DNA from: Aureococcus anophagefferens
Lineage: Eukaryota > Sar > Pelagophyceae > Pelagomonadales > Pelagomonadaceae
DNA length: 64,000 nt
Assembly (NCBI RefSeq): GCF_000186865.1
Contig: NW_008705568.1
Location: 1,401,506-1,465,505, forward strand
Direction of reading: 5' to 3'
The stretch's first letter is position 1. Each line of letters starts with the position of its first letter. A program made the translations under genes and the position numbers. The notes below the pieces were generated by a model. It saw only the letters and a list, made by a program, of their open reading frames with translations, made no database searches and had not been told where the DNA came from. Shown piece after piece: positions 1,972 to 54,768 of the stretch.

Positions 1972-4389
1972 CTAGCAGCCGTACTGCTGGCTGAGGGCCT
2001 GCTTCGCGTCGGAGACCTCGGCCATCTTCCGCGCGGCGCGCTCCTTGGAGCCGCGGGCCTTGTCCGGGTGCCACTGGCGCGCCATCTTCTTGTGGTGCTT
2101 CTTGAGCCAGAAGCACTTGCGGTCCTTGGAGAGCGAGTCGACGTTCGCCGGGAGCTCGAGGACCTTGGCGTGGTCGCGGCGCTTCTCCCACGCGTCCTCG
2201 CCGCGCCGCGCGTCCTGGAGCTTCCGCCGGAGGTCGTGCTCGACCTGTGTGGATTCCAAATCTTCAACCCGACTTCAATGTGCGCGTAATCGAACGATTT
2301 GGACCAGACTCTTTCGCTGTGCTTCGAGAACTCGACGAGAGCAATCGATTCGTCCAAAAATCAGCCGAATCGACTTCGATTTGACCGAAATAGAGAGTTC
2401 TGAAGTTTGGTGGGGACCCCCCAAACCAGTGGTTGGAATCCACACTGTGCTCGACGCCCTCGTCGTCGACGTACGCGTAGGCCTCGTTCGCCATGCGCTC
2501 GCCGCCGACGAGCTCGATGCACGCGCGCCAGTCGCGCACGGCGCTCTCGAAGTCGTCGTCGCGCTCGTACGCGAGCGCGCGCGCCGCGCGCGCGTCGACG
2601 GAGTCGAGCGCGGCGACGGCGCCGTCGCACGCGTCGAAGGCGACCTCGTGGCGCTTCACCTTGGAGTTGGCGTGGCAGGCCCGGAGCTGGAGCGTCGCGC
2701 GGTAGCTCGCGAGCCGCGACCCCTCGAGCTCGTGGCTCAGCGCGTCGAGGCTCCCGAAGGCCTCGTCGAGCGCGTCCAACGCCTTCACGGAGTAGCCCTT
2801 CCTCAGGTGCTTGTCGACGGCCTCCGTCTTCCGCTTCAGCGACTTGAGCCCGTCGTACTGCTTCTTGAGCGGCGCCGAGTCGGGGTCGTGGCGCAGGCCC
2901 GCCTGGACGAACTTGATCGACTTGTCGAGGCGGCCGCGCTCGAGCGCCGCGGCCGCGCCGATGGTCAGCGCGAGGGTCTTCGGCGCGCCGGCGTCGAAGG
3001 GGAGGCGCATCGTCGCCTTGTCCGACGTCTCGAGGTGCTGCAGCGCCGCGGCCGCGGCGGCCTCGGCGCCCGCGTGGTCGCCGAGCACCGCGCGGGACCG
3101 CGCGAGCCAGACGGCCCACTTCGTCGGCGCGCCGCCGCGGACGAGCAGGCCGAGCGACGCGACGGCCTTGGTCCAGTCGGCCTTGGAGTCCTCGTCCGTC
3201 GCGCGTTCGTCGAGCGCGCGCGACAGGTCCCGCACGGCGTGGACGGCGGCCCGGCAGGTCTTCCGCAGCCGGTCGAGGTCCTCGTGGAGCTTCTTGACCA
3301 GGAGCGCGCCGTCGTCGGACGCGCCCGCGAGCGGCTCCGCGGCCAACGCCGCGCGGATCAGGTCCGCGAGGGCGCCGGCGAGGTCGCCCGCGGCCTCGGC
3401 GACCGCCGCCGCGTCCCGCAGCGCCGCCGGGTCGCCGGCCGCGGCGCCGCCGAGCTGCCGCGCGACGTCGAGCGCGTGCGCGTTCGTGCACTCGTAGGTT
3501 TCGGCCGGCGGCGCGCCCGCGCAGAAGCGCGCGGCGGCGGCGGCGCCGTCCTCGCCGGCGCGCTTGATCACTTTGCACTTGACGTCGCCGGGGTTCAATG
3601 TAAAAGCCACGCCGGGGCCCGGCGTTTGCGGGTCGTCGCGCGCGGCGGCGAGCGCGGCCGCCTCGCGCTCGAGCATGGCCCGGAAGCCGGCCTCGGCGTC
3701 GCGGCGCCGCGCCAGCGCCGCGTCGCGGCTCGCGGCCTCGCGGGCCATGCGAGCGTCGTAGATCGCGCGCGCGGCGGCCTCTTTTTCGAGCTGCTCGCGG
3801 TGGGCCTTTTCGTCGCGCATCGCCTCCTCGGCCATCTTGCGGAACGACTCGACCTTGTCGCGCTCGATGCCCTTGCGCCGCGACGCGCGCAGGTAGTCCG
3901 CCGCCGCGGCCATGTGGCGGTCCTCGAGGGCCGATTCCTCCGCGCGCCGGACATGCTTGCCTACCAAGCATGATGGTGACGATTTCTCATTGCTTTCCCC
4001 ACCCGAAATATCTCGAAAATCGTCACGGCCACAGGACGCTGGTGCTTGCCCGCCGTCTTTAACACGGTGTTGTTGGCCGCCGCGAGCGCGGCGGTTCTGG
4101 CGGTCGTCGCCTCGCCGGCGTCGAGCTGCTGCTCGACGATGTCGGCGATGCGGCAGGCGAAGTCGACGTCCGGGTTGATGGCGCGCACGTGGTAGACGAA
4201 GCGCAGCGCCGCGTGGACGGCGTCCTCGCCGATGGCGACCTCGACCTGCGTCTGCTCCTGGGACTTGTCGAACTTGATGCCCACGCTCGCGAAGGGCGGT
4301 TCCGCGGACCCGTCGACGCCCACGGCGACCTCGGCGCACCGGGCCAGCGACGCGCAGAGCGCCAACGCGACGACGAGCTTGGCTGCCAT
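1972..4389 (-). CDS. Secretory-pathway TPR/J-domain co-chaperone (P58IPK-like)
   Basis: Three exons, 4389-4050, 3960-2456 and 2244-1972, give about 705 residues. The start MAAKLVVALALCASLARCA is a signal peptide. A charged coiled coil follows (about 130-200, rich in EKEAAARA and MAREAASR), then helical TPR-type repeats. The last exon (residues 616-705) is a J domain with the HPD motif in MARQWHPDKARG, which stimulates Hsp70 ATPase. Signal peptide, TPRs and a C-terminal J domain are the architecture of ER DNAJC3/P58IPK. There is no KDEL; the C-terminus is QQYGC. Intron 1 (3961-4049) is GC-AG with a 7-bp direct repeat. Intron 2 (2245-2455) is an introner element inserted just before the J domain. 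Both splices preserve frame exactly. The ATG at 4389 is the only one in frame. Family placement is likely; orthology to P58IPK is inferred. Confidence 0.75.
2245..2455 (+). mobile_element. Introner element, family 1 (copy 1), acting as an intron
   Basis: A 211-bp element lies in the TPR/J gene, read on the minus strand as an intron. The target duplication is GTCGAGCAC, present at 2447-2455 and again in the exon at 2236-2244. In gene sense, the GT of the upstream copy is the 5' splice site and the element's terminal CCACACAG is the 3' splice site. Removal restores GAG GGC GTC GAG CAC GAC with no codon change. Terminal inverted repeats are TGTGGATTCCAA-like. The core shared with other copies, AAAATCAGCCGAATCGAC, reads on the plus strand. 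The orientation is opposite to the gene. Confidence 0.9.
3961..4049. mobile_element. Candidate short introner of a third type (89 bp)
   Basis: This intron of the TPR/J gene is bounded by a 7-bp direct repeat, GCAAGCA in gene sense, at 4043-4049 and 3954-3960. The upstream copy supplies a GC 5' splice site and the element ends in TAG. Inside, GTGACGATTT near one end is repeated inverted as AAATCGTCAC near the other, about 15 bases in from each end, so the whole could fold as a MITE-like hairpin. Splicing joins ACG GCG G to GC AAG CAT in phase 1, exactly in frame. Its sequence is unrelated to the ~200-bp introners. It could instead be an ordinary intron with a chance inverted repeat. Confidence 0.5.
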
Positions 4390-4630
4390 GACACGCGGCG
4401 CGGCGATTTGCTCGATGCCTTTGTCAGCCAAAAAAGGTTGCCTTCATCTCCGGCCAAAAACCGCTTCTCGCAAGCATGGTAATAGCTACCGAGCTTCCCA
4501 TGCTTTGACCGCGTCGTCGCCGTGGTCGCGTCGTCACCTGCGTCGCAGCGCGAGCCGCAAGGGCAGCGAGGCGCGCTGCGAGCAGCGAAGCGGATCTCGC
4601 CGCGGCTGTGCGCCGCCCGGCGCGCCGCGC

Positions 4631-9739: not shown

Positions 9740-9744
9740 GTTTG

Positions 9745-13980: not shown

Positions 13981-16900
13981 ATGGCCGCAATGGCCGACGA
14001 CGCCGACGGCCCCGCGCGCCGCTGGTCGACGGCCGTCGCCGCCGTGGCGGCGTCGAAGATCCAGGCCGTCGTGCGCTTCAAGGCCGGCGCCGACGGCGTG
14101 CGGGCGCTCCACGCGGCGTTCCGCGAGGAGATGCGGTCCGCGGGCGTGGACCCGCGCTACCTCGGCGACGAGCACTGGGCCCGGGGCTGGGGCAAGCACT
14201 TCGAGCACCTGCCCTGCGACGGCGCCATCCCCCGGGCCTTCGGGGCCGCGCGGTCGCTCCGCGTCATGCAGTGGAACCTGCTGGCCGAGGGCCTGACGCC
14301 CGACGGCTTCCTCATGCCGCTCGTCTCCGCGGAGCACGTCGCGCGCTTCGAGGCCTTCCTCGCGGACCTCGTGTCCACGGACGTCGCGCGCGCCGCGGAC
14401 CTCTACGCGCGGGGGCACCGCAACGTCATCTGGGAGGAGGGGTCGCGGGACTACGTCGCCTTCGCGAGCATGGCCGCTGAGACGATGACGCGCATGAAGA
14501 AGTGCGCCGGCAAGGACGAGAAGAACGCCGTGGGCCTCGAGCTGAAGGCCAAGTACTCGCCGGCGTCGACGTCCGACGACGGGTCCGGCCAGATGTCCGT
14601 CAACGAGGCGGCCGTCACGTCCGTCGGCCACCGACTGCTCCGCGCGCGCCCGCGCGACAAAAACTTCAAACAAAAACTTCAAACTTCAAACAAAACCGTC
14701 CAACTTCGACGTGCGACCGCGTCGACGCGCGCGCGTCGCTTCGAGCGCCATGGATGCGTCCAACGATGGCCCGCGCGACGTCGACGCGGCCGCGCTCGCG
14801 CGTTTTTTACGTTCCGCCACGCGAAAACCCGGCGCTCCCTTTACGTAGGCGTGCTCTGGTTCGTCGCCGTCGCCGAGCCGGACGTCTTCTGCGTGCAGGA
14901 GTGCGACAACTTTGAATTCCTGAGCGAGCGGCTCGGCGAGATGGGCTACGCGTGCGCCGCCGAGGGCGACGACGCGTACGTCCCTTTGAAGGATCGCGCC
15001 GGCGCGACGTACGCGGAGAAGCTGAACGCGTCGCGCTTCGCCTTCGCGCCGAAGACCGACGCCAAGCCCAAGAAGAAGGGCAAGTCGAACGCGCGCTTCT
15101 TCCTGGAGAACCGGACCAAGGGCCCCATCTGCGGGAAGGCGTACGGCACCGACGACGACGGCACGGCCGTGTTCTGGAAGGCGTCGCGCCTCAAGCTCGT
15201 CGACGGCCCCGAGTTCCGCGTGCTGCCCGGCGAGAAGGACGTCGAGGCCTACGCGACGGGCGCCGCGGAGGAGCTCGGGAACGCCCGCGGCGACGCGGCG
15301 GCCGTCCGGCTCCGCTTCGAGCTGTTGGACCCCGCGTACCGCGGCCACGCGGTCCACGTCACCGCGACGCACCTGAGCTCGGGCAAGAACAAGGAGGTGC
15401 GGCGCCTCGCGGAGCTGCGGGGGCTCTGGGGCAAGAGCCGCTACCCGGAGGTCTGGTGCCGTGCCGAAATCAATCACCGGTCGGGTTCTTCCGGCCAAAC
15501 TTCTCGAGCTCGGTCACATCGACGTCGATTCGGCTGATGTTTGGACGAATCGATCGCTCTCGTCGAGTTCTCGAAGCACAGCAGAAAATCTCACGTCGAA
15601 ACTTGCTCCTACGCGCACATTGAAGTCGGGTTGAAGATGTGATTGCAGGTCTGGTGCATGGACGCGAACACGGAGCTCGACTTCGAGGACCCGGCGCGCG
15701 CGCTCGGCAACCCCGTGGGCGTGCCCGGCCACAGCAACGCGCTGCGCACCTTCCTGCGGGAGCGGCCCCTGCTGCGGAGCGTCTGGGCGGCCCACTACGA
15801 CGGCGCGGCGCCCGGCGAGCGGCCCGTGTCCGTGTGGAAGATGCGAGGCGCCGCGCCGTGTGGAAATCAAATCTTCAACCCGACTTCAATGTAAGCGTAT
15901 GCGACCGTTTCGACGCAAGCTCTTCGGCTGTGCTTCGAGAACTCGACGAGAGCAATCGATTCGTCCAAAAATCAGCCGAATCGACTTCGATTTTGACCGA
16001 GCTAGAGAGGTTTGAAGTTTGGTCAGGACCACCCAAACCAGTGGTTGAATTCCACACAGGCGCCGCGTCGAGCCAGCCGACGAAGATCGGCGAGGACGAC
16101 TACCAGCTCATCGACCACGTCTTCTACGACGGCAAGGACCTCTTCGACGCGGGCCACCTCGCCCTCCACCTCCGGGAGCACAAGACGGGCGCCTACGGCG
16201 AGGACCGCGCGGCGCGCGCCCGCGTGGACATCAAATATGCAACCCGACTTCAATGTGAGCGTATGTGACCGGTTCGACGCGAGCTCTACTGCCGTGCTTC
16301 GAGAACTCGCCAAGAGCACTCGATTCGTCCAAAAATCAGCCGAATCGACTTCGATGTGACCGAGCCGGAGATTTCTGGAGTTTGGCCCCGACGTCCCAGC
16401 TCACCGGTTGATTTCCACGCAGGCCGGCACGCTCGACCGCCGCGACTGGCTCGGGCTGCTCCCCAACGAGATCGTCCCGAGCGACCACCTGCCCATCGTC
16501 TGGGACTTTCGCCTGCGCCGGGCGCCGCGCCTCTGCCTGCCGGGCCTCCTCGACGCCGCGGCCGCGCTGCTCGCGGGCTCGCCGCGGTCGCGCCTCGCGG
16601 CGCCGGACCTCGACGACGGCGGCGCCGCGTGGCTCGCGGCGCTCCGGGGCGACGCGGCGCGCGTCCTCGAGGGCGGCGCGTCCTTCGAGGCCGAGCTCGG
16701 CGGCGGCGCGCGCGCGCCGCGGCGCGACGCGGCCGCGCTCAGGGACGACGCGGCGAACGCGGGCCTCTTCCTCGCCGGCGCGCTCTTCGCGGACCGGGAC
16801 CACGCGCCGACGCACCAGGAGACGCTGCTCCTCGCGGCCCTGCGCTGCGCCTACGCCGCCGTCGACGGCCTCGGCGGCGACGGCGCCGGCGGCGGCGTGT

Positions 16901-19272: not shown

Positions 19273-20492
19273 ATGTGGTCGCAACGCCTTCTGCTCGTCG
19301 TCGCCGCGACCTGCTCCGCCTACCCGCGGTCCGTGCCGGGCCTGTTCAGCGTCGAGGAGACGGAGCGCATCGTCGCCCTCTTCGACGGCTCGGAGCCGTC
19401 GAGGGATGTGCGGGACGACTTCCAGGTGCGCCGCACGAACCGCTGGCTCGGCGGCGCGGCCCTCGCCGCGGGCGCGTTCGATTGGGTCATGGCGAAGATC
19501 CTCGCGGCCGACGACTCCTGGGGCGGCGCGCGCTGGGCCGACGTGTCGTCGTTCCTCGCGGAGCGCGTCGAATTCGTGTTGCTCCACGAATTCGCGGCGG
19601 CGGACGGCTTCGGCTGGCACGTCGACGCGACGCCCAACGACGTCCTCGACGACAAGCACCGCTTCCTCAACGTCAACGTCGTCCTGAGCGACCCGGGGGA
19701 CTACGACGGCGGCGCCCTCCAGGTCGGCGCGACGAACGTCTCGCTCGGCCGCGGCGACTTGCACGTGTACCGCGCGTCGACCCCGCATCGCGTCTACGAG
19801 GTCACGCGCGGCGTGCGGAGGACGCTCGTCGTCGCGACGAAGTTCGGCGGCGACCGCTTCGGCCTCCGCGACGGCCCGCGCGGACGTCGACCCTTCGACG
19901 CGACTTCGACGGACCGGACGCTTCGGCCGCGCTTCGAGAGCGATGAATTCGTCCCAAACTTGAGCAGCCAAGACGACGTCGATTTTTTTGCGCAGGCGAC
20001 GACGAGCGCGCGCGGTTCTGGGAGTTCGCGGGCACGGAGTACGCGCGGCTCTGCGACGGCGCGCTCTTCGACGTCGACGAGTGCCACTGGATCATGAGCC
20101 AGTACCTCGCGGAGCGCGGCGAGGACGCGGCGGCGCGGCGGCGGGCGCAGGTCGTCTACCGCCGCGAGCCCGCGGAGGAGCGGGCCCGGTCCGTCGCGTT
20201 CTTCACGAACCGCGCCAAGGAGCGGCGCGCCGGCGGCGACCTCCGGGGCGCCATCGAGGACCTCGAGTTCGCCATCGGCGTCGAGCCCGACCCAAGGCTC
20301 CACTTCAACCTCGCGTTCATGATCCTCACGGCGGCGGACGCGACCGTGACGGCCGCGCGCCTCGACGCGGCCGACTCCGCGCTCGTCGACGCGCTCGAGC
20401 TCGCCGACGACGAGTTCCGGCCGCGCATCCGCCGCCTCCAGGAGGGGCTCGCGGCGCGCCGCGGCGAGCTCGCGGACGCCGGGGAGCTGTAA
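19273..20492 (+). CDS. 2-oxoglutarate/Fe(II) oxygenase (prolyl 4-hydroxylase-like), secreted
   Basis: Two exons, 19273-19849 and 19996-20492, about 357 residues. The N-terminus LLLVVAATCSA is a signal peptide. The double-stranded beta-helix core has the iron ligands H-x-D in FGWHVDATPND (about residue 118) and the distal His in RASTPHRVYEV, with the 2OG-binding Arg in RGVRRTLVVATKF. LNVNVVLSDPGDYDGGALQV is the typical P4H strand. The intron is 146 bp, GC-AG, phase 1: TTC GGC G joins GC GAC GAC GAG, and it ends in a T-run then GCGCAG. The second exon adds a helical tail with TPR-like repeats (RRAGGDLRGAIEDLEFAIGV). Peptidyl-proline is the likely substrate class; the actual target is unknown. 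Confidence 0.8.
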
Positions 20493-22932: not shown

Positions 22933-24647
22933 ATGCAGGACGCCGCCGTGGCCCCGCTGGGCTACGCGGCGGTGCACACGATCCTGCCGGAGGCCGATTC
23001 GGCGCTCGCGCCGGTCATGCCCGGGTCCATCAACATCATCCCCGAGACGCCGTCGTGGCCCGCGGCGCCGCCGCCGGCCGCCGCGGCGCCGCCGCCGGCC
23101 GCGGCCGCGGCCGCCGCGGCGCCGCCCCCGCCCCTGCCCGACGCCGGCGCCGGCCAGCAGGCGCCGGAGGCCGGCCCGCCGCGCGCCCGGGGCGTCGCGC
23201 GCGCGCGGTGGAACAACGAGGAGGAGGACCACCTCAAGCGGCTCGTCGGGGAGCACGGGTCGAAGCGCGAGTGGCAGCTCATCTCGGAGCGCCTCGGCAC
23301 GGGCCGCACGGCCTCCGGCGTCGAGCAGCACTGGCAGGTCATGACGGGCCAGCGCCAGCGCAACGGCACGACGATCCCCAAGGAGCAGCAGAACCCGGAG
23401 CAGGCGAAACTCGGCGAGCTCGGGAACAAGGACGGCCGGTCCGGCGCGGAGCGGCGCACGTCGGCGCGGTGGACGACGGAGGAGGAGGCCATCCTCAAGC
23501 AGGCCGTCGGCGAGCTCGGCAAGGGCAAGTGGACCGTCGTCGCGGAGCGCCTCGGCAGCGGCCGGTCGCCGTCCGCCGTCGAGCAGCACTGGCAGATCGT
23601 CACGGGCCGGCGCGAGTATCTTCAACCCGACTTCAATGTGCGCGCATGCGACCGTTTCGACGCGAGCTCTTCCGCCGCGCTTCGAGAACTCGACGAGAGA
23701 AAACGATCCGTCCAAAAATCGGCCGAATCGACGTCGACGCGACCGAGCGAGAGAAGTTTGGCGGGGATAATCGAGCTCACTGGTTGATTTCCACACAGGT
23801 CACGGGCCAGCGCAAGTCCAAGGGCGCGCACGCGCAGGCGCGCGCGACGTTGGCCCCGGCGGGCGCCGCCGCCCCGCTCGTGCCGGGCCTGGGCGCGCCG
23901 GTCGCGGCGGTCGCGGCGGCCGCCGGGGGCGCCGCGCGCGACAAGGGCGGCGCGCGGTGGAACGCCGACGAGGAGGCGGCGCTCGGCCGCTTGGTCGCCG
24001 AGCTCGGCCCCCGGGGCAACTGGCTCGCCATCAGCACCCGCCTCGACTCCGGCCGGTCGCCGGGCGCCGTCGAGCAGCACTGGCAGATCATGCACGGCGC
24101 GCGCAAGGAGGGCGACGCCGGCGAGAAGCGCAAGGGCGGCGCGGGCGCCAAGAGCCGGTCCGTCGCGCACCGCTGGACCGCCGAGGAGGAGGCGAGCCTC
24201 AGGCGCCTCGTCGGCGAGCTCGGCGGCCGCGGCAAGTGGCAGGCCATCGCGGACCGCCTCGACAGCGGGCGGACGCCGAGCGGCGTCGAGCAGCACTGGA
24301 AGATCATGCACCACACGCACCACGGGACCAAAAAGCCGCGCCTCGAGCCGGCGCCGGCGCCCGTCGCCGCGGCGGCGGCGCCCCTCCCGGCCCTCGCGCC
24401 CGCGCCGGCCGTGGAGCAGGCGGCCGTCGCGGCCGTCGAGCCGCTCGGCGCCGTCGCGCCGGTCGTCGCGGCCGCGCCGCCGCCGCTCGCGCCGCCGCCG
24501 CCGCCGGACGTCGTCCACACCGTGCCCGTCGTCGAGCCCGAGACCATCAACATCATCCCCCAGATCGTCCCCAACTCCTTCGAGCCCATGCCCGTCGCGG
24601 GCGCGCCCGTCGACGCGTCGACGGGGCTCCCGGGCATCGAGCCCTGA
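22933..24647 (+). CDS. Four-repeat MYB/SANT-like DNA-binding protein
   Basis: Two exons, 22933-23598 and 23799-24647, 504 residues. Four MYB-type helix-turn-helix repeats of about 50 residues have three spaced aromatic residues each: RWNNEEEDHLKRLVGEHG..W, RWTTEEEAILKQAVGELG..W, RWNADEEAALGRLVAELG..W and RWTAEEEASLRRLVGELG..W. Each closes with GVEQHWQ or AVEQHWQ. Such proteins bind DNA as transcription regulators. Long Ala/Pro-rich linkers separate the repeats. The two ends of the protein echo each other: HTILPE...PGSINIIPETP near the start and HTVPVVEPETINIIPQIVP near the end. The second exon begins after an introner inserted within the end of repeat 2 (QHWQI | VTGQRKS). Four near-identical repeats suggest internal duplication. 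Confidence 0.85.
23599..23798 (+). mobile_element. Introner element, family 1 (copy 5), 5' terminus lost
   Basis: A 200-bp intron in the MYB gene, with target duplication GTCACGGGCC at 23599-23608 and 23799-23808. The upstream copy gives the GT donor, phase 0. The element's first ~14 bases (the usual TGTGGAAATCAAAT repeat) are missing or replaced by GGCGCGAGT, while the 3' repeat TTGATTTCCACACAG is intact. The intron is therefore consistent with splicing needing only the target-derived donor and the 3' terminus. Confidence 0.88.
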
Positions 24648-27743: not shown

Positions 27744-29694
27744 ATGCACATCCTCCTGCTCGTCGCGAACTTCCCCTGGTTCTACGGCGCCTACACGGAC
27801 CAGGGCTGGAAGCTGGCCAACGGCCTCGTGGACCTGGGCCACGACGTGACCTGGTGCACGTGGATGTTCCACCACCCGGGCTACCACGACGACCACGCCG
27901 CGGCGGCGAAGGCCGCGGGCAAGCGGCCGCCGACGCCCGAGGAGTTCGTCGGCGAGCCCTGGGACCGCGTGCGCTACTTGGGCCTCGACAAGCGCGAGCG
28001 GCCCGCGGAGGGCTTCCGCATCTCGGACGTGAACCGCATCGCGTCCGAGCTCGCCGTCGACGGCGTCATCTCGCTCAGCGACGTCGGCCGCATGGTGCCC
28101 GACGAGAACGCGCGGGTCCGCTTCGCGTCGTGGTTCCCGCTCCACTTCGCCAAAATCGACGCGGACTTTGCGCGCGCGCTCAACGTGTACTCGGACATCG
28201 TCGCGCTCGCGCCGTCCAGAGCAGGAACAGGGTGATTCAACGTCGCTTCAATGTGAGTATTCCGCGCGCGCGCGCGTTCCGGAGAAAGCATGCACGCGTC
28301 GAGAGCGCTCCGAGAGATCATCGCTCGTCCAAAAATGAGCCGAAACGAGCGGAACACGACCGAGAGAGGAGCCTTTGAAGGTCGGAATGTCGCACTCTTT
28401 TCCTGCCCAGGCGCCGTCGGCGAACAGGGCCCTCGCGCTGGGCCTCGCCAAGGAGGTCACGGTGACGACGATCCCCCACGCCGTGGAACCGCCGCCGTCC
28501 TTCACACCCGTCAACGACGTCGCCGCGCGGCGCAAGGCGCGCGGCATGCCGCCGGACGCGTTCGTCGCGTTGATCCACTGCGGCAACTACGAGAACTACA
28601 ACCGCAAGGCCCTCGACATCTCCTTCATGGCCTTCGCCAAGTTCCACGAAGCGCGGTCGTCCCCCGGGGGCCGCGAGCTCTTCCTCTACGTCCACGCCAT
28701 CTCCGTGAAGCGCATCAACGACAACTTCGGGAACCCGCAGGGCGGCCCCGACGTCGGCGCGGACGTCGAGTCCATCGCGGAGCACAGCGGCCTGCCGAAG
28801 GGGTCCTACGTCTGGGACGACGTCATCCACGAGATCGGCGCGGCCTTCGAGCTCATGGCCCTCGCGGACGTGCTCCTCATGCCGAGCCGCGTCGAGGGCT
28901 TCGGCATCCCGATATTGGAAGCGCAGCTCCTCGGCACGCCCGCGATCACGGCCGACTTCCTCGCTATGGGCGACTACACGTGGTACGGCGAGGCCGTGCC
29001 CATCCTCCAGACCGAGTACATGGTCAAGGGCATGGTCGCGACGCCGAGCGTCAACGGCACGGCCGCCGCGCTCGGCCGCGCGCTCGACAAGGGGCCGGGC
29101 TTCCGGGCGGCGGACGCGGCAAAGGCGCGCGCCAAAATCAAAAACATGATGTCCCGCGCGACCGTCGCCAAAGCCTTCGAGACCCTGCTCGCGAAACCGC
29201 TCGCGCCGGCGTGGCTCGCGCGCGCGCGGCCCGCGCCGGCCAAGCCCGCGGCCGTCGACGGGACGTGGCTCGCCGTCGCCTACGAGGCCGAGGCGTCGGC
29301 GTACCTCGCGGCCTACGACGCGCGGCTCCCGTCCTGGGCGCTGACCTACTCCGAGGACTACGCCGTCGACGAGACCTGCGTCGCGCGGGCCATGAACAGC
29401 GTCGCGTCCGAGGCGAACCACCTCGGCGAGGCGGACTACACGGTCCTCTTCGGCGCGCTCGACGCCGACGGCAACGAGTTCCCGACGCAGGCGCACCTCG
29501 ACGCGAATGTCCTGCCGCCGGCGACGCCGCTCGTCGTCCCGGCCTGGAAGCTGCGCAAGGAGCTCGCGACGGCCAAGCCGGGCGCCGCGGGCAACTTCCA
29601 GGCGGCCTACCAGCTCTTCCTCCAGGCCAAGATCAAGCGCCGCGGCGACACGTCCTGCGTGACGGCCCGCAAGTCGAAGCAGGCCGAGCTCTAA
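27744..29694 (+). CDS. GT-B-type glycosyltransferase (GT4-like)
   Basis: Two exons, 27744-28208 and 28411-29694, 582 residues. The N-terminal Rossmann-like half begins MHILLLVANFPWFYGAYTDQ, the typical start of GT-B enzymes with a glycine-poor loop. After the intron the C-terminal half reads FVALIHCGNYENYNRK, ADVLLMPSRVEGFGIPILEA and LLGTPAITADF; the last two are the nucleotide-sugar-binding E-x7-E region of GT4 enzymes (here E-G-F-G-I-P-I-L-E). The final 150 residues are an extension with no recognised fold. The single intron is a family-2 introner with a GC donor; splicing gives IVALAPSANRALALG, a normal helix in this fold. The donor sugar and acceptor are unknown. Its stop is 17 bp from the opposing gene's stop. 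Confidence 0.8.
28209..28410 (+). mobile_element. Introner element, family 2 (copy 1), GC donor
   Basis: A 202-bp intron in the glycosyltransferase gene. Target duplication GCGCCGTC at 28209-28216 and 28411-28418. The upstream copy supplies a GC donor in phase 0 and the element ends CCTGCCCAG. Its inverted termini (GCAGGAACAGGGTG and CACTCTTTTCCTGC) differ from family 1, but the interior GTCCAAAAATGAGCCGAA is clearly related to the family-1 core. A GTGAGT inside the element at about 28251 lies downstream of an in-frame stop, so it cannot be the donor. Confidence 0.85.
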
Positions 29695-43900: not shown

Positions 43901-46849
43901 CGTCCCAGACCTCGCAGCTGTAGCTCAGCTTGACGTCGTTGTTGCCGAACGCGCGGATCTTGAAGTCGTCCGTGTCCGAGATGGCGCCCGTGGCCTGCAC
44001 GATGGAGACGGTGTAGAGCGAGTCCGCGGTATCGCAGTCGTCCGTCGACGCGACGATGGGCTCGGGCACGGGGACGGACCAGACGTAGTTGTTCGTGTCG
44101 TCGAGGTTCGTCACGTTGACGTGGTACGTCGCGAGGCAGGCCGTGACCTCGGCGTAGGTCAGGATGTTGTTGCTGTCGAGGTCCCACTCCTGGAGCGCGG
44201 AGCGGACGTCGTTCGTCACCGTGACCGTGTCGTCGACGGCCGCCGTCGTGCCGATGTACGCGCGCGTCAGCGGGTTCGCCATGAGGAGCATGTGGCCGAG
44301 CGAGATCGTCGCGACGGTCGAGCACGAGGTCACGGTGCACAGCTCGCCCGCCCAGCCGGTCTCGCAGACGCACTCGCCCTGCGACGCGGCCCCGTCGGAG
44401 TAGGTGGAGTAGTGGCCCGGCTCGCCGTCGTCGTTGTCGGCGGCGCAGTCGACGCAGTCCGTCGCGCCGGCCGCGTCCTGGTACGTGCCGCCGGGGCACG
44501 CCGCGCACCCCGTCGCGCCGTCGTGGCCCGAGTAGCGGCCCGCGGGGCAGTCCGTGCACTCAGTCGCGGCGTCGCCGCTGTAGGTGCCCGCGGGGCACGT
44601 GACGCACTCGGTGCCGGCGTCGTACGTGCCCGCCTCGCAGAGCGTGCAGGCCGTCTCGAGGGAGATGGCGCCCGTCTCGCCCGTGGAGACGTAGCCCGTG
44701 GGGCACGCCGTGCAGTTGGACGCGCCGCTCCCGGCGTAGCTGCCCGCGGCGCACGTCGTGCACGTCGAGCGGCCGGCCTCGGCGTACGTGCCCGACGGGC
44801 AGCTCTTGCAGCCCGTCGCCCCGTCGACGCTCGAGTAGCGCCCGCTGGCGCACTCGCTGCAGCCGTGGCTCCAGTAGTAGTAGTCCATGCCCTGCGCGTT
44901 CCCGTTCGACGGCGCGCAGCCAAAATAAAGGCCGCAGCCGTAGCCCGTGGAGTCGTCGGCGTCGAAGTAGATGCCGTCGCACTGCTCGCTCGTGCAGAGG
45001 TCCTGGCAGGCCTCGAGGCTGTCGCCCGCGTCCGTCGTGGAGAACTCGTAGTACTCGACCTGGCCGGCGCTGTCGTCGTCGCCCTGGAGGTGGCCGCCGA
45101 AGTAGTTGCCGCAGCCGTGGCCCTGGGACCAGTAGATGGCGTCGCAGCCGGCCTCCATGCACTGGTCCTGGCAGCCCTCGAGGCTCACGGACGCCGGGAG
45201 GCCGAGCGCGTTGTCCGTGTCGTAGCCGTAGCCGCAGCCCCCGGACACGTCCGGGCAGTAGCGCTCGAAGGAGCTCCAGCTCTCCCAGTAGCCCGCGACC
45301 CTCGTGAAGATGCCCGTGGCCACGTAGCCGCCGCCCCAGACGTAGCCCTCCGGGCGGCAGGCGCCCGCGTCGCTCGGGCAGTAGGCGGCGAACTCCGTCC
45401 AGTCGGCGCAGACGCGGCCCGCGCCCAGGGCGACGAAGGCCCCGGCGTTCGCGTCGAGGCCCGACGAGGCGCCGTAGTAGCCCGCGGGGCAGGACGTGCA
45501 GTCCTCGCCGCCGAAGGTGTAGGTGCCCTGCGGGCACGCCGCGCAGCCCGTCGCGGACCCGGAGCTGTAGCGGCCGCCGGGGCAGTCCTCGCAGTTCGTG
45601 CACGTGCAGCAGCTGTCGCATTCGTCGTCGCAGCCGCTGTGGGAATCGTCGCAGCCGTTGTCGCAGCTGCCGCCGCACAGGTAGGGCCAGTCCTGGCAGT
45701 CCTTGCCCGCGTAGTAGCCGCTGCTGCTGTACGTGTTGGGCGGGCAGCCGGTGCTGCTGATGTCGCAGAGGCCGAGGTCGCCCTCGTCGAGCTGGCGCCG
45801 GAACTCGGCCATGAGATCGCCGGCCGGCGCCTGCTCGTCGCAGACCGCGGCCCGCGTGCCGGCGAGGCCGAGCGTGAGGTGCGTCGAGCCCTCCGCCTCC
45901 GTCGCGCGCGCGCTGTGCACGGCGCCCTGGGGCAGGAAGAGCAGGTCGCCGGGCCCGAGCTCGAAGTCGTCGCAGACCTCGAGGCCCGACATCTCGCTCG
46001 CGTCGTACGTCGCGCACGTGCCGTGCTTGGCGACGGCGTGCACCTGCGCGGCGTTCAAATGCTCCGGCGTCGCGCGGATCGCGCGGCGCGCGCGAGCGCC
46101 GCCGCGAGCTCGACGAGCGACGGACGCTTCGTCCGATCATCGGCCGGAGCGACGTCGACGCGACCGGGCTCGGGCGCCGTCGACGTCGGGCCCCGCGCGG
46201 CTTCGACGCCGGCCGGAGCCGGCGTGCAGACGTGCCAGGCCTTGGCCCCGGCGATCTGGAAGACGACGACGTCGTTGAGGTCCGTGTGGTTCGCCAGCGC
46301 CGCGGCGCCGGGCGCGGACACGTAGACGTGGGCCGTGTCGCCGCGGTCGAGGTCGAAGACGGGCTTGGGGAAGAGGCGTTCGACGGCGGCCGTCGCCGCG
46401 CGCTCCGACGCGTCGACGCCGAAGAGGTACTCGAGGCGCGCGACGACGGACATGCGCTCCTCGCGCGCGTCGGACGCCACCGGCTCCGGCGCGCCCAGGC
46501 CCGCGAGCAGCGCGGCGGCCGCGGCGTCGCCGCCGAACGGCTCGCCGCCGCCGTCGCCCTTGACCGCGGTGCGCGGCGCGGCGCCGTCGCTCACGAAGGG
46601 CGCCAGCAGCGCGCTCCGCAGCGTGGCGAGCTCGTCCGGCGCGTAGGCGCCGCCGCCGCGCGCGAGGAAGACCTCGCGCCGCGCGACGTGCGCCGCGAAC
46701 CAGGTCGCATTCGGGCCGATGTCGCTGCCCCAGGCCGTGGAGAGGTCTTCGTGCTGCAGGGTCGCGACCACCTCGGGGTCGAGACGGTCGAACTGGAAGC
46801 CGGAGGAGACGGGGAGCGCGAGCAGCAGGGCGAGCGCGGCACGCGCCAT
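37990..46849 (-). CDS. Giant fusion: JmjC-type cupin plus Cys-rich ectodomain and C-terminal membrane anchor
   Basis: Exons 46849-46103, 46043-39172 and 39112-37990, 2913 residues. The start MARAALALLLALPVSSG is a signal peptide. Residues ~1-310 are a cupin_4/JmjC-like 2OG hydroxylase core with iron ligands H-x-D in ALANHTDLNDVVVFQIAGAK (about 185-187) and the distal His in LFLPQGAVHSARA (about 290). Residues ~350-810 are Cys-rich, with many GCC2/GCC3-type repeats (CPAGTYSGDAATECTDCPAG), two PAN-like blocks (LEGCQDQCMEAGCDAIYW) and an EGF-like CVCETGWAGELC. A DLDSNNILTYAEV EF-hand loop follows (about 868), then a long Asp/Ser/Thr-rich extracellular region including FN3-like parts. HVVATAAAAVVLVASLAFVYV (about 2857-2877) is the anchor, followed by a short coiled coil. 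Both introns are 59 bp, GC-AG, and frame-exact. Confidence 0.7.
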
Positions 46850-47390
46850 GAGATCGAGAGTTTGAAGCATGCTGCCCGCAGAAATCGACGTCGAAGGCGG
46901 TCGGAATGCCTGAAGATCGAGGCTGCCTGCTTCGGAAAATCGGGCACGCAGCTGCGTTGGACAACGCACTAATATAATCTGCATGGCAGAGTTGACCAAT
47001 TTATTGAAGGGAACGCGAACCCAGATTTATCGACCGAGAGCTCTGACACAAATTCATATGCAAAACTAACCCTTGACGGAATAAACTTCACAATCTATGA
47101 TGAATTTTGGGATATTGATGGCTCGGAGCGCACAGCTTATATTGAAGGAGATGCAGACCTTTAAACGAATGGCTCGCATCGTTTATGATATATACGTTGG
47201 GCAATTATAATCACTACGGCTCATTTCCTATATGTTGAAGCTTAAAAAGCTGAGTTCAAGTTGCAAACTTTGAACTTGCTTGCAACGTAACACGTAACCC
47301 GAATAAGTACCCGAATCCAGCGGCTCCGAGTTCCCACCGAGCCCGCTGAGACTGCCCGTTGCAAGCATAGTACACTTGTGCGCCGGGACC
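46850..47390. other. Intergenic region with an AT-rich island
   Basis: The first 100 bases are the leader and promoter zone of the giant gene. Base composition then changes sharply: 46960-47300 is AT-rich, unlike anything else in the window. It contains the ORF remnant described separately and no other feature I can name. Confidence 0.6.
46973..47164 (+). other. AT-rich open reading frame without a start codon (possible foreign gene fragment)
   Basis: Between a TAA at 46970-46972 and a TAA at 47162-47164 there are 63 sense codons with A/T-rich third positions, unlike every neighbour. The reading is protein-like: QFIEGNANPDLSTESSDTNS, YAKLTLDGINFTIYDEFWD and YIEGDADL. There is no ATG in the frame. 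It could be an exon with nearby splice sites, a fragment of a laterally acquired or viral gene, or chance in a low-GC stretch. No family recognised. Confidence 0.3.
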
Positions 47391-49507: not shown

Positions 49508-50921
49508 TTAATCGAGGTCCGCGCGCGGCGGCCGCGGCGGCGCCGGCGGCGGGGCCGCGTCGGGGCGCGCCATGGGGAAGGACAGCTTGTAGAAGAAGCG
49601 GTCGACGACGGTGCCGCCGGCCGGCGCCGCGCGGTCGCCGCTCCAGTGGTCCGCGACGGCGGCCGCGGGCGCGGGCGGCGGCGGCGCGCGCAGCGCGCCG
49701 GCCATGGCGAGGGCGTGGGCGCAGCGCAGGTGCCCCCCGCGCGTCGCGTAGCCCAGCGCCGTGCGGCCGTCGCCGTCGGCCGCGCGGACGTCCGCGCCTC
49801 GGCCGACGAGCGCGTCGACGGATTCGCAACACCCGAACCGCGCGGCGTGGACCAGCGCCGTCGCGCCGTCGGCGCCCGCGGCGTCCAAGTCGAGGCCCGG
49901 CGCGTGCTCGAGGAGCGCGAGCGCGCAGGCGCCGTGGCCGTAGCGGCAGGCCTTGATGAGCGGCGTCTCGCCGTCCGGGTGCGACCGCGCGCCCGCGTCC
50001 GCGCCGCGCGCCGCGAGCGTCGCCGCGGCGTCCGGCAGGTCGTTGACGCAGGCCCAGTGCAGGGGCGCGTAGCCGCCGCCGGGCGCGTCGAGCGCGCCCG
50101 CCGCGACGAGGCCCCGGGCCTCGAGCTCGAGCGCCAGGACGACGGCCGCGCGCGACGCGGACCGCGACGCCGCGAGCGCCAGCGGCGCGAAGCCCTGGGC
50201 GTTCCGCGCCGTCGCGTCGGCGCCGGCGTCGAGCAGGAGGCGCAGGCAGGGCACGGCGTCCGTCGCCGCCGCCGCGTGGACCTGTGTGGAAATCAACCAC
50301 CGGTTCGGCACGTCCCGACCAAACTTTCTCGAGCTCGGTCGAATCGACGTCGATTCGGCTGATTTGTAGACGAATCGATTGCTCTCGTCGAGTTCTCGAA
50401 GCACGGCCGAAGAGTCTGGTCCAAACCGTTCGATTGCGCGCACATTGAAGTCGGGTTGAAGATTTGAGTTCCACGCGGGCGTGGACGGCCGTGTCGCCGT
50501 GGGCATCTCTGACGTCGAGCTTCCGCGCGTCCATCGCCAGAAGCCGCGCGACGTCGGCCGCCGCGGACGCGCGCGTCGCGAAGCGGTGGAGCGCCGTCGA
50601 CCCCTTGGCGTCGAGCGCGAAGAGCGCGGCGTCCCGGTCCCTCGCGGCGTCCGCGTCCGACCGCTTCGGCTTCGCCTTGGGCGCGCGCGCGACGGCGTTC
50701 TGCGGCGCGACGAGCGCGCGGCTGGGCGCGGTCTCGCGGCCGGGCACGGTCTCGCCGCAGCGCTCCGCGGCGAGCGCGAGCGCGGCGGACCGCCGCGCCG
50801 CCGCGGCCTCGCGCGCCGCGTCCCGGTCCTCGGCCGGCGCCCGCGCCGCCGCCTCCTGCTCGCTCCGGCGGCGCCGCGCGGACGCGTACTCCTTGTCCTT
50901 CGACTTGCGCGCCGGCGGCAT
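49508..50921 (-). CDS. Ankyrin-repeat protein with an introner
   Basis: Two exons, 50921-50487 and 50281-49508, 402 residues. The N-terminal 80 residues are basic and coiled (KSKDKEYASARRRRSEQEAAA). Then about seven ankyrin repeats run to residue ~360: STALHRFATRASAAADVARL, DTAVHAAAATDAVPCLRLLL, FAPLALAASRSASRAAVVLA, YAPLHWACVNDLPDAAATLA, ETPLIKACRYGHGACALALL, ATALVHAARFGCCESVDALV and RTALGYATRGGHLRCAHALA. The introner sits within the second repeat (DTA|VHAAAA) and its removal is exact. The C-terminus is Pro/Ala-rich. No catalytic domain; a protein-binding scaffold is inferred. Confidence 0.85.
50282..50486 (-). mobile_element. Introner element, family 1 (copy 6)
   Basis: A 205-bp intron of the ankyrin gene (read on the minus strand). 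Target duplication GTCCACGC in gene sense, at 50479-50486 and 50274-50281. The upstream copy gives the GT donor, phase 0, and the element ends CCACACAG. Splicing produces GCC GTC CAC GCG GCG, restoring an ankyrin repeat of correct length. Orientation A (GAACTCAAATCTTCAACC first) relative to the gene. Confidence 0.9.
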
Positions 50922-51042: not shown

Positions 51043-52090
51043 ATGGCTCGAATGCGCGTCGTTCTTGCCCTCCTCCTCTGCCGCAGCGCCGACGCCTGGC
51101 TGGCGCGCCGCCATCCCGCGCATTGTTGGCAGCGGACCACCGGCGCCCGGCCGCTCCGCGACCAACCTTTACGCGCGACGACGCTGTCCGTCGAGGACAA
51201 GCTGGGCACGACGCGCGCGCCGGAGCTCGGCGCCGACGAGGAGCGCCGCGCCGTCGCCGCGCTCCGGTCGGCGGCGCCGTCGCTCAGCGACGCCGAGCTC
51301 GCCTGGTTCGCGCGGGACCGCCGCGGCGACGTGGCCGAGGCCGCTCCCAAAGCCGCGGCGTACGTCGCGTGGCGGAGGAACTTCGGGGGCCTCGGGGGCG
51401 ACCGGGCGGCGCTCCTGGACGCGGCGAGGAGCGAGCGGCGGAAGCGCGTGGGCTACCTCGCGCGCGAGCGCGACGTGCTCGGGCGGCCGGCCGTCGTCGT
51501 CGTCGCGCGGCGCCACGACGCGACGCGGCGGTCGCTCGACGCGTCCAAGGCGCTGTGCCTCGCCGTCCTCGAGGACGCCGTCGCGAGCCTCGAGGGCGAC
51601 GGCGAGCAGTTCCTCGCCGTCGTCGACCTGCGCGACGTCGGCCCGCCCCAGGTCGACATCCGTGTGCAAATCAAATCTTCAACCCGACTTCAATGTGCGC
51701 GTATGCGAATGTTTTGACACAAACTCTTCGGCTGGGCTTCGAGAACTCGACGAGAGCGATCGATTCGTCCAAAAATCAGCCGAATCGACTTCGATTTGAC
51801 CGAGCTAGAGAATTCTCAAGTTTGGCCCCGACGTCCCAGCTCACTGGTTGATTTGCACACAGGTCGACATCCCCTTCGTGCTCTGGCTCGTCCACGCGTT
51901 GCGGTCCTACTACCCGAAGCGCCTCGGCCAGGTCGCCCTCGTCGACCCGCCCACGGTGCTCTTCGAGAGCGCCTGGAGCGCCATCAAGCCCGCCGTCGGC
52001 CGGCACGCGAAGCTCGTCCGCCTCATCTCCAACGCGGAGCTCCGGCGCGACTACTTCCCCCCGAACCGCGCGCCCCGGGACCTCCTGTAG
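51043..52090 (+). CDS. Sec14/CRAL-TRIO lipid-transfer protein
   Basis: Two exons, 51043-51651 and 51863-52090, 278 residues. The N-terminus RMRVVLALLLCRSADAWLA is a signal-like leader with AW near the cut, possibly plastid-directed. The CRAL-TRIO N-helices include PSLSDAELAWFARDR and AAAYVAWRRNFGG; the lipid-binding domain has GRPAVVVVARRHD, EQFLAVVDLRDVG, then after the introner VDIPFVLWLVHALRSYYPKR, LGQVALVDPPTVLFESAWSA and IKPAVGRHAKLVRLIS. This is the conserved D-x-x-G, YPE-like, and hydrophobic-gate order. Members bind and exchange phosphatidylinositol or other lipids. Splicing is exact: CAG joins GTC GAC ATC CCC. Confidence 0.85.
51652..51862 (+). mobile_element. Introner element, family 1 (copy 7)
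   Basis: A 211-bp intron of the Sec14 gene. The duplication GTCGACATCC is perfect over 10 bp, at 51652-51661 and 51863-51872. GT donor from the upstream copy, phase 0. Terminal repeats GTGTGCAAATCAA and TTGATTTGCACACAG are exact inverted repeats sharing the same G-for-A change, which suggests a young insertion or a distinct subfamily. Confidence 0.92.
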
Positions 52091-52282
52091 CTTTAGACGC
52101 GGCGGTCGGTGTCGGCTGCGGGTGGCAGGGGGTGGAGGGCCGCGGCGGCGCGCGTTGCAGCCATCGATGCAGTCGGCCGGCGGCTTCAATAATCCGAACT
52201 TGCACTTTGCCTCCCGCCTCTGCCTCGCCGTCTTTGCAGCGTCGCCTCTGCCGCGGCGACCTGCGCGCGCGGCCGACGAGCC

Positions 52283-52885: not shown

Positions 52886-53041
52886 GTGCCGGCGGCCGCG
52901 CGCGCCGCTCGTAACGTCGGACCCTTCGCGCCCGGGGCGGGATAGTATGCTGGCCCGTGCGGTGAACAGATTCAACTTGGACTTCAACCAAACTTAATTG
53001 AGGAGAGATGAGAACCCAAATCCACTGTTGGGCTGCATCCG

Positions 53042-54768
53042 ATGGAGGCGTGCTGCGCGCTGCATCCGGAGGCTGCGGAGCCACCGGTCCATAGCCACCA
53101 GGACCATCGCCATCATCATTATCATCAGGTCCTGCACCACCACCACCATCGTCGTTCTCCGTCGGCGCCGCCGGCGCTGCTCGCGGTGTACGACGGCGGC
53201 GGCGACGACGTCGGCGCGTACGCGGACATCTCGCCCTCGGCGGCGGGCCCGCGTCGCGAGGCGTCGGAGGCGGCGCTCGAGGCGCGGCTCGCCGCGGTCG
53301 AGGCGCGGCTCGAGGCGAAGGCGGCGCCGGCCGACGCGGCCGGCGGCGGCGACGCGGCGCCCCTGGGCCACGGGTACACGTTCCGCGTCCAGACCATGCT
53401 GCTCTACGACGCGACGTCGCCGACGCTGCTCCTCCACCTGGGCGCGTGCGTCGCGGTGAAGATGCTGCAGCTCGTCGCGCTGCAGGCGGTCTGGCAGACC
53501 ATCTTCTTCCCCATGGACTTCCAGCGCCGCGTCGCGGGCGACGACGCCTTCGACGACGGCTACCCCGCCTTCCAGGGCGGCATGCCCTTCCCCGTGGACT
53601 ACCAGTCCCTCTTCTCGAGGCACAACCACAACGGCGGCGTCGGCGTCGACGGCGTGAACTGGGTCGTCCTCTTCGTGCTCGTCTTCTGCAGGGCAGCAAA
53701 AGGGTGCGACATTCCCAACTTCAAAGGCTCCTATCTCGGCCGTTTTCCACTCGTTTCGGCTGATTTTTGGACGAGCGATCATCTCTCGGAACGGTCTCGA
53801 AGCGTAGATGCTTTTTCCGGAACGCGCGCGCGCGGAACACTCACGTTGAAGCGACGTTGAATCACCCTTGTGCCGCCCAGGTCTTCTGCTGCTTCTGCGC
53901 GACGCTCGCGACGGTGCCGGAGCTCGACAGCGTCAAGGCGGGCTTCCTGCTCCTCGCCGAGCGGGCCCACGCGTGCCTCGTCGACCGGAGCGAACTCAGT
54001 GGCGACGTCGCGTTCCGCCTCGCAATGTGCTTCCTCGTCCACCTCCTCCGCGTGACGCTCTTCTGGTATTATTTGGACATCCAGGCCCAGCTCTTCGGCA
54101 CGACGGACGGGCCCCTCGACCTCCTGCTCAACTCGCTCGCGCTCGGCTTCGTCCTCGAGGTCGACGACGTCATCACCTACGACGGGCCGAGCTCGAACCT
54201 CTTCGGCCTCGACCTCTCGGAGCGGCACCGCGCGGAGGCCTCCGAGCGCGGCGCGCGGGTCCGGGCGACGCTCGCGGCCGCCGCGGCCCACGTCCGCGGC
54301 GCCGGCGCCCGCGTCCGCGGGGCCTACTTCGCCATCCCGACGGCGTGCACGCTCGCCGTCGGCTCGGCGACCTTCCTCATCTCCTTCAAGATGCAGCGCT
54401 ACACGACCAACGGCGACTTCGTCACCATCGACGACGACTCGCCCCTCGGCAAGAAGCACCCGCAGCTCACCCACCTCTACAACTGGATGCTCTACGTGGC
54501 GCTCGCCGCGATCGTCGTCAACATCCACTCCGTCGCGTTCATCGTCGCCGAGTCCTACGACCGGGCCAAGCACCGACGCGCGGAAATCGCCGTCGCCGTC
54601 GGCCGCGCGCTCTTCGACTTCCACTTCTGCGCCCTCTTCCGCGTCTGCGTCGTCCAGTACCTCATCGGCCGGCTTTTCATGTTCAACCAGAGCACGACGA
54701 CCTTCTCCCTCGACTTCTGGAATACCCTGAACCCCGCGCCCGACCGCGCCAACGGCTCCGACGCATAA
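53042..54768 (+). CDS. Multi-span membrane protein of unknown function with an introner
   Basis: Two exons, 53042-53680 and 53881-54768, 508 residues. The N-terminus has a His-rich run (HRHHHYHQVLHHHHHRR, about residues 22-38) that could bind metal. Hydrophobic helices: SPTLLLHLGACVAVKMLQLV, NWVVLFVL|VFCCFCATLATV (spanning the intron), FRLAMCFLVHLLRVTLFWYY, AIPTACTLAVGSATFLISF and LYNWMLYVALAAIVVNIHSV. Loops include EVDDVITYDGPSSN. Family not recognised. The introner lies inside the second helix and its removal rebuilds an uninterrupted hydrophobic segment, good evidence that it splices. An earlier start is possible; 53042 is the first ATG in frame. Confidence 0.7.
53681..53880 (-). mobile_element. 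Introner element, family 2 (copy 2)
   Basis: A 200-bp intron. Target duplication GTCTTCTGC at 53681-53689 and 53881-53889. GT donor, phase 0; the element ends GTGCCGCCCAG. Terminal repeats GGGCAGCAAAAGGGTG and CACCCTTGTGCCGCCC match the other family-2 copy, but in reverse orientation relative to the gene. Interior TCGGCTGATTTTTGGACGA is identical to the family-1 core. Confidence 0.88.

What the first reader, a model, noticed from the sequence alone, without database searches (positions are those of the whole stretch)
2245..53880. Nine dispersed ~200-bp elements serve as introns: an introner-element system
Seven genes carry introns of 198-212 bp that share inverted terminal repeats and an interior core (AAAATCAGCCGAATCGAC or its complement). 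They lie at 2245-2455, 15451-15648, 15848-16059, 16224-16422, 23599-23798, 28209-28410, 50282-50486, 51652-51862 and 53681-53880. Each sits inside a conserved coding domain and each removal restores frame and domain. This matches the introner elements described in Aureococcus and Micromonas (Huff et al., Nature 2016): non-autonomous DNA transposons that create introns. No transposase is visible here, so they depend on an enzyme elsewhere.
Basis: partly seen in the sequence, partly recalled or inferred. Interest (0 to 1): 0.95.

Follow-up and report, generated by a model that had tools for sequence, protein, structure and literature searches.

The report
Transposon-made introns in algal genes
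Nine roughly 200-base segments in the genes of a likely algal genome are copies of two related mobile-DNA-like families, each with over a thousand sequence matches in that genome, and they are predicted to be cut out of RNA as introns, as in the known 'introners' of the brown-tide alga Aureococcus.

Summary
Removing each restores the coding frame (9 of 9). Of 48 near-full-length copies from the window and genome loci, 46 have an 8-base target duplication matching at 7 or more bases (39 exact; control 5 and 1). In 45 of 46 testable copies the intron reads G[T/C]...AG, donor in the duplicated target, acceptor at the element's end. The genome holds 1,091 exact cores and 2,859 B-type ends. This is the anatomy published for Aureococcus anophagefferens; size and GC fit, but the species was not proven. 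No transposase was tied to the elements. New here: two older relics in the window (14642-14848, 19886-19995); B ends carry exactly one acceptor (27 of 27 complete pairs) and matched variants (21 of 27); and a related gene from another source (65% identical protein) appears to hold a B introner within about three codons of the A introner at 15451. Splicing was not tested in RNA.

The parts
2245..2455 (-). Introner A, antisense to its gene; intron = element 2245-2447 + duplication copy 2448-2455 (TGCTCGAC; other copy 2237-2244)
   Evidence: 8/8 duplication, GT..AG on - strand, frame phase 0/0
14642..14848 (+). Decayed introner A relic, 207 bp, GC..AG, duplication GCGCGCGC / GCGTGCTC (6 of 8); fourth introner of the gene that holds 15451, 15848 and 16224
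   Evidence: profile match 14678-14816, E 5e-5; homologs P0003, P0004, P0006, P0007 skip residues 232/233-300 of the open frame; removal gives HRLLR-VLWFV as in the homologs
15451..15648 (+). Introner A, antisense to its gene; duplication GTCTGGTG at 15451-15458 and 15649-15656
   Evidence: P0004-P0007 run ungapped across the junction
15848..16059 (+). Introner A, sense; GC donor; duplication GCGCCGCG at 15848-15855 and 16060-16067
   Evidence: P0004-P0007 run ungapped across the junction
16224..16422 (+). Introner A, sense; decayed 5' end and duplication; donor uncertain (in-frame GC/GT at 16191, 16209, 16212, 16218, 16224)
19886..19995 (+). Shortened introner relic (110 bp, GT..AG) that still behaves as an intron by frame
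   Evidence: profile E 5.3e-9 over 19879-19990; phase 1 on both sides
23599..23798 (+). Introner A, sense; duplication GTCACGGG at 23599-23606 and 23799-23806
28209..28410 (+). Introner B, sense; GC donor; duplication GCGCCGTC at 28209-28216 and 28411-28418
   Evidence: protein P0001 (95% identical) is continuous across the junction
50282..50486 (-). Introner A, sense to a - strand gene; element 50282-50478; duplication GCGTGGAC at 50274-50281 and 50479-50486
   Evidence: ankyrin match spans the junction
51652..51862 (+). Introner A, sense; duplication GTCGACAT at 51652-51659 and 51863-51870
   Evidence: CRAL-TRIO match spans the junction
53681..53880 (+). Introner B, antisense; duplication GTCTTCTG at 53681-53688 and 53881-53888

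Best explanation
The nine segments are copies of two related families of short transposon-like elements that sit in protein-coding genes and are predicted to be spliced out as introns. Shown in sequence: terminal inverted repeats, an 8-base target duplication, coding frame restored by removal, a GT or GC at the start of the first duplicate and an AG at the element's far end. Inferred: a transposase supplied in trans recognises the matched ends and pastes the element in with an 8-bp duplication. If the duplicated target starts with GT/GC on the gene's strand it becomes the 5' splice site, and the element's end supplies the 3' splice site, so the spliceosome removes the first duplicate plus the element and the mRNA is unchanged. 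Family A carries an acceptor-like CAG at both ends and so can work in either orientation. Family B carries an acceptor at one end only, so only insertions pointing the right way would be tolerated in exons. This is the introner-element mechanism described for Aureococcus.
For: Duplications: 46 of 48 near-full-length copies match at 7 or more of 8 bases and 39 at 8, against 5 and 1 of 48 in a control 25 bp further out with equal freedom. Frame: of 46 testable copies, 36 have strong coding signal on both sides and 35 of these keep frame after removal; the 10 weaker ones also do. At random non-introner places frame is kept in 473/478 with nothing removed, 360/379 with 210 bases (a multiple of three) removed, and 12/419, 11/398 and 14/377 with 200, 211 and 212 removed. 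Splice sites: 45 of 46 read G[T/C]...AG, 22 GT and 23 GC. Independent proteins cross junctions without gap: P0001 at 28209, P0004-P0007 at 15451 and 15848. Copy number: 548+543 exact cores, control 0; 774 A ends, control 0; 2,859 B ends, control 1. Ends are matched: B end variants agree within a copy in 21 of 27 complete pairs, shuffled mean 7.5, 0 of 20,000 shuffles reach it. Gaps between neighbouring hits fall at 126-211 (8) and 319-356 bp (4), none between (12 gaps under 400 bp, measured between hit ends, some hits partial), as expected if insertion avoids nucleosomes.
Against: No RNA reads were available, so splicing itself is not shown. No autonomous partner was found: hAT and KDZ searches gave nothing (their controls were silent too), and MULE gave nothing (control rang in 3 of 14). 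P-type transposase loci exist but carry no A or B ends where readable. The donor at 16224 is ambiguous and homologs are gapped there. Homolog P0003 does not cross the 15451 junction: its match stops at residue 499 and it then reads into a B-like introner. The codon model was trained on three gene models that contain five of these introns, and duplication ends were chosen as the best of a small set of offsets (the control had the same freedom). The copy sample is not random except the 110-kb stretch of C1.
Confidence: 0.93

Rival explanations
1. Unspliced MITE-type elements that simply disrupt these genes (pseudogenes or mis-assembled genes).
For: TIRs and target duplications are those of ordinary MITEs.
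Against: Coding signal in the same frame resumes after removal in 45 of 46 testable copies; 45 of 46 carry G[T/C] at the start of the duplicate and AG at the far end; homologs cross two junctions of the gene with 15451-16422 and the 28209 junction without gap.
Confidence: 0.04
2. Introners that spread through RNA (reverse splicing), as proposed for some fungal introners.
For: The sampled copies lie in coding sequence: 36 of 46 with strong and 10 of 46 with weaker coding signal on both sides; no intergenic control was made.
Against: TIRs, 8-bp duplications, antisense as well as sense insertions in both families (A 14 anti, 10 sense; B 13 anti, 6 sense); an RNA intermediate of a spliced intron would be expected to insert in sense only and leave no duplication (inference).
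Confidence: 0.02
3. Ordinary old spliceosomal introns that look alike through shared composition or gene conversion.
For: They behave as introns by frame.
Against: End-to-end similarity at unrelated positions in unrelated genes, both orientations, with element-specific duplications.
Confidence: 0.01

Closest known systems
Introner elements of Aureococcus anophagefferens (Huff, Zilberman and Roy 2016; paper not held, recalled; described in passages seen of PMC9481584 and PMC7789003)
   Same: Introns of about 210 bp (PMC9481584 calls this the characteristic length of the A. anophagefferens elements); TIRs and direct repeats of constant length with canonical splice motifs (PMC7789003); one splice site carried and one co-opted from the duplicated target (recalled). 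Assembly here 49.05 Mb, window 71.7% GC; A. anophagefferens CCMP1851 is 49.9 Mb, 70.5% GC (PMC11237714).
   Different: Nothing shown to differ. Published element sequences could not be compared, and the species of this genome is not proven.
Introners of Aureococcus sp. TARA_AOS_82_MAG_00129, family 4 (Gozashti et al. 2022, PMC9860276, sections 7-8 and passages read)
   Same: Same genus if the host is Aureococcus; 8-bp target duplication.
   Different: The example there is 77 bp, carries both splice sites and adds 12 bp to the mRNA; here one site is co-opted and removal leaves mRNA length unchanged.
Introners of Symbiodinium microadriaticum (PMC9860276, Fig. 2B legend)
   Same: TIRs, acceptor carried by the element, donor co-opted from the duplication.
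   Different: 4-bp rather than 8-bp duplication.
Non-autonomous DNA transposons (MITEs) with 8-bp duplications, e.g. of hAT or P superfamilies (recalled)
   Same: Length, TIRs, duplication length.
   Different: Ordinary MITEs are not spliced introns; superfamily here not assigned.

Membership tests
Introner elements (DNA-transposon type) | Many dispersed introns of high sequence similarity in unrelated genes | tested here: met
   1,091 exact cores, 774 A ends, 2,859 B ends in G000; seven genes in the window
Introner elements (DNA-transposon type) | Terminal inverted repeats | tested here: met
   A about 15 bp, B about 13-18 bp, ends listed for 43 copies
Introner elements (DNA-transposon type) | Target-site duplication of constant length | tested here: met
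   8 bp: 46 of 48 at 7 or more matches, 39 of 48 exact; control 5 and 1 of 48
Introner elements (DNA-transposon type) | One splice site carried, the other co-opted from the duplicated target | tested here: met
   45 of 46 G[T/C]...AG; by sequence only
Introner elements (DNA-transposon type) | Actually spliced in RNA | not testable with these tools
   no RNA reads; indirect support from frame and homologs
Introner elements (DNA-transposon type) | Insertion between nucleosomes | tested here: inconclusive
   12 gaps under 400 bp fall at 126-211 and 319-356 bp; no nucleosome data, small number
Introner elements (DNA-transposon type) | Mobilised by a transposase encoded elsewhere with matching ends | tested here: inconclusive
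   P-type genes found, no matching ends
The published A. anophagefferens introner families | Sequence identity to the published consensus | not testable with these tools
   paper not held
The published A. anophagefferens introner families | Host is A. anophagefferens | tested here: inconclusive

The most novel reading that the evidence does not exclude
Family B is a one-way introner whose acceptor end is not tied to its body, and it is older than its host species. Every complete pair of ends has exactly one acceptor end, yet the body lies in either orientation relative to it, even in copies 2.5% apart, so the outermost bases are reset or flipped during transposition. A relative whose ortholog is only 65% identical holds a B introner within about three codons of the A introner at 15451, so the same spot in one gene gained introns twice from two families. 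The partner enzyme would be a P-element-type transposase, one of whose genes here holds the most diverged introner body as an insert.
Probability: 0.13. Interest if true: 0.65.

Novelty: already known. Interest (0 to 1): 0.38.

Why it matters
Introners are the best-documented route by which new introns appear in bulk. This window is a clean, checkable example: duplications, co-opted donors (half of them GC), both orientations, and young, old and decayed copies side by side, four of them in one gene. If the one-way ends of family B and their matched variants hold genome-wide, they give a handle on how the transposition reaction treats terminal bases that double as splice sites, and a way to search for the missing transposase. 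The B-like introner in a related gene, at nearly the site of an A introner here, is a lead on introner families shared between species and on parallel intron gain.

Tried and rejected
Autonomous partner: nine 10-kb stretches chosen at A-type end hits, mostly lone or core-less ones, were fetched in hope of longer elements with the same ends. In eight, the profiles found only ordinary ~200-bp copies or pieces of them; in the ninth, the end pair 745 bp apart at C1:2651791-2652535 resolved into neighbouring copies. Pfam searches of the whole genome: hAT dimerisation 0 (control silent), KDZ 0 (control silent), MULE 0 (control rang in 3 of 14). P-type RNase H (PF21787): one match, C25:178372. A protein search added two 99.9% identical copies near the ends of C2 and C11, each with a 563-aa open frame. 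No A or B ends were found within the readable stretches (best 4 or more mismatches). I first took the introner body beside the C25 transposase for the end of an autonomous element. This was rejected: transposase homology resumes after it (L036 ORF 298-484 matches L033 5444-6034, E 3e-21), so the body is an insert in the gene.

TIR swap between A and B: rejected as stated. The ends are more diverged than the body but still alignable. RNA stem as the reason for matched end variants: only eyeballed, with no excess of G-U over A-C mismatches seen; not pursued.

Viral spread: 3 IMG/VR contigs hold the exact core, but in AT-rich sequence without any introner profile match; about the number expected by chance (my estimate), so dropped.

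Organism: rDNA route closed; protein searches gave no Aureococcus name.

Rows dropped before counts: 59 profile hits, less 2 duplicates in L008 and 9 partial copies = 48. Two of 48 lay too near a locus end for the frame test. Viral contigs L029-L031 and L032, L034-L037, L049 and L050 were left out of the copy sample. In one search, 65 listed ends gave 27 pairs; 11 single ends were set aside, and the later part of the list (one strand only) was not used.
Full report
What was checked. The nine intervals were read from the window. All are 198-212 bp and lie where stated. The exact 18-base core is in four of them and the others carry variants. Direct repeats of 8 or more bases flank eight of the nine near their boundaries (16224 is the exception).

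Frame. Exon sequence around the junctions carries position-3 GC of 0.97-1.00. Pfam matches cross the junctions at 50282 (ankyrin), 51652 (CRAL-TRIO) and, by three residues, 28209 (GT4-type glycosyltransferase); one abuts the junction at 23599 (Myb); none covers the junctions at 2245 or 53681 or any of the 15451-16422 gene. A protein from other sequence collections, P0001, is 95% identical over 582 residues with no gap across the 28209 junction. Four Nocturnin-like homologs (P0004-P0007) run ungapped across 15451 and 15848 and are gapped at 16224; a fifth, P0003, stops one residue before the 15451 junction.

Copy number. The window lies in an unnamed 49.05-Mb genome in 86 contigs. The core 18-mer occurs 548+543 times, its reversed control 0 times. 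The A end 15-mer occurs 774 times, control 0, often as +/- pairs 203 bp apart in the part listed. The B end pattern occurs 2,859 times, control 1. An unselected 110-kb stretch of C1 holds 7 copies (L018 three, L019 one, L022 three), which scales to about 3,100 in the genome (my arithmetic, wide error).

Anatomy over many copies. Profiles of A and B found 59 hits in 41 sequences (280 kb). After dropping 2 duplicates and 9 partial copies, 48 near-full-length copies remain (27 A, 21 B). The 8-bp duplication matches at 8/8 in 39 and at 7/8 or better in 46; the same search 25 bp further out gives 1 and 5. In 46 copies with enough flank, 36 have strong coding signal on both sides and 35 of these keep frame after removal of one duplicate plus the element. 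The other 10 are weaker but also consistent. Random places give 473/478 with nothing removed, 360/379 with 210 bases removed, and 12/419, 11/398 and 14/377 with 200, 211 or 212 removed. Splice sites read G[T/C]...AG in 45 of 46, with 23 GC and 22 GT donors. Both orientations occur: A 14 antisense and 10 sense, B 13 and 6. Phases among the 35 strong copies are 21/8/6 for phases 0/1/2, against 347/230/299 G[T/C] starts by codon position in the training exons, a modest phase-0 excess.

Two relics. 19886-19995 (110 bp, GT..AG) matches the A profile (E 5.3e-9) and has coding phase 1 on both sides. 14642-14848 (207 bp, GC..AG) matches it weakly (14678-14816, E 5e-5). It lies in an open multiple of three, so a reader sees no stop, but P0003, P0004, P0006 and P0007 skip it. 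Its removal gives HRLLR-VLWFVAVAEPD, as in those homologs, and its flanks match at 6 of 8 bases. The Nocturnin-like gene thus holds four introners.

An introner in a relative. P0003 (ENA contig of 2,506 bp, predicted protein of 527 aa) is 65% identical to this gene up to residue 499. After that its residues 410-434 match the translation of B elements read antisense (up to 76% identity, E about 1e-9 against the 48 copies; 22 kb-scale hits in the loci are listed). So the gene caller that made P0003 seems to have read into an unspliced B introner. Counting back through the element and an 8-bp duplicate puts its start within about three codons of the A introner at 15451 (my arithmetic; the DNA was not seen). 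This suggests that family B exists in a diverged relative and that the same spot was hit twice; Gozashti et al. report no homology between introners of different species outside a genus (PMC9860276, passage). Whether P0003 comes from another genus is unknown.

Mechanism. The acceptor CAG is the outermost part of the inverted repeat, and the donor is the first two bases of the duplicated target. Cutting out one duplicate plus the element leaves the exon unchanged. This is the published introner mechanism (Huff et al. 2016, recalled; not held; described in PMC7789003 and PMC9860276, passages and sections 7-8 read). PMC9481584 (passages) gives about 210 bp as the characteristic length in A. anophagefferens.

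Two families. A consensus 203 bp, median copy identity 87%; B consensus 192 bp, median 95% (the B sample is biased to similar copies). Bodies are homologous (profile A finds B copies at E 2e-7 to 5e-14) and ends are more diverged. In A, the acceptor-side end keeps CTG (read inward) in 24 of 24, while the other end has T at position 2 in 11 of 24 and C, G or A in the rest, as expected when only the acceptor side is held by splicing.

One-way ends in B. In the first 1.46 Mb of C1, 65 B ends are listed: 27 complete pairs and 11 single ends. Position 2 (left free in the pattern) is T at one end and A (24), G (2) or C (1) at the other in all 27 pairs; none has T at both. So each complete pair has exactly one acceptor. 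The body, however, lies in either orientation to the acceptor end (13 and 6), with only weak clustering by orientation (nearest neighbour same in 15 of 19, shuffled mean 10.3, P about 0.03), and the closest opposite pair differs by 2.5%. A four-way variant class at positions 8-11 is identical at both ends in 21 of 27 pairs (shuffled mean 7.5, 0 of 20,000). I have no tested explanation; recombination between the inverted ends that flips the body, or remaking of ends at insertion, would both do.

Transposase. P-element-type genes are present: C25:177958-179139 (one match to PF21787; 7 TAG and no TAA/TGA in 394 codons) and two 99.9% identical open copies near the ends of C2 and C11. An introner-like body (E 2.3e-18) is inserted in the C25 gene, with transposase homology on both sides. 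It is a diverged copy: of the 40 matches scored in the genome (327 candidates), all but itself and one cover only a 66-72 bp core at 85-88%. None of these loci carries the A or B ends where readable, and part of the C25 flank is withheld. The 8-bp duplication would suit a P or hAT transposase (recalled), but no link is shown.

Organism. Size and GC fit A. anophagefferens (CCMP1851: 49.9 Mb, 70.5% GC, PMC11237714, first part of the text read). No rDNA could be read and no protein hit bore an Aureococcus name. I rate the host as probably Aureococcus, about 0.75.

Verdict. The kind is known and, if the host is A. anophagefferens, so probably are the elements. The additions are the two-family structure, the one-way and matched ends of B, the two relics, the B-like introner in a relative's gene, and the counts. 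After re-checking, interest was raised from 0.36 to 0.38 for the relative's introner.

Noticed in passing
P0003 residues 400-434 (ENA contig, Nocturnin-like gene): Predicted protein of a relative reads into a B-type introner within about three codons of the site of the window's A introner at 15451; possible parallel intron gain in another species.
   Followed up: partly
window 14642-14848: Decayed introner hidden in an open frame (207 bp, no stop in the gene's frame); homologs skip it. Length-divisible, stop-free introners would be missed by frame-based readers.
   Followed up: yes
window 19886-19995: Shortened introner relic, 110 bp, GT..AG, coding phase 1 on both sides.
   Followed up: yes
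window 46106-46171: Weak match to the A profile (E 3.6e-5) in GC-rich sequence; possibly exonised or chance.
   Followed up: no
L033 4087-5268 and 5444-6034 (G000:C25): P-element-type transposase gene whose first 394 codons hold 7 TAG but no TAA or TGA and no frameshift; decay or reassigned TAG not decided (the homologs aligned do not show Gln at the aligned TAGs). Second half is AT-rich.
   Followed up: partly
L033 5303-5431: Diverged introner body inserted in that transposase gene.
   Followed up: partly
L035, L036 (near ends of C2 and C11): Two 99.9% identical subterminal stretches with an open 563-aa P-type transposase frame; likely a subtelomeric duplication.
   Followed up: partly
B consensus, about 37 bases in: A GTGAGT donor-like motif lies inside B in the sense direction; its use would be expected to break the frame in sense copies, so it may be a vestige.
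   Followed up: no
window 46856-47388, 62982-63347: AT-rich stretches (GC 0.47 and 0.52) without introner match.
   Followed up: no
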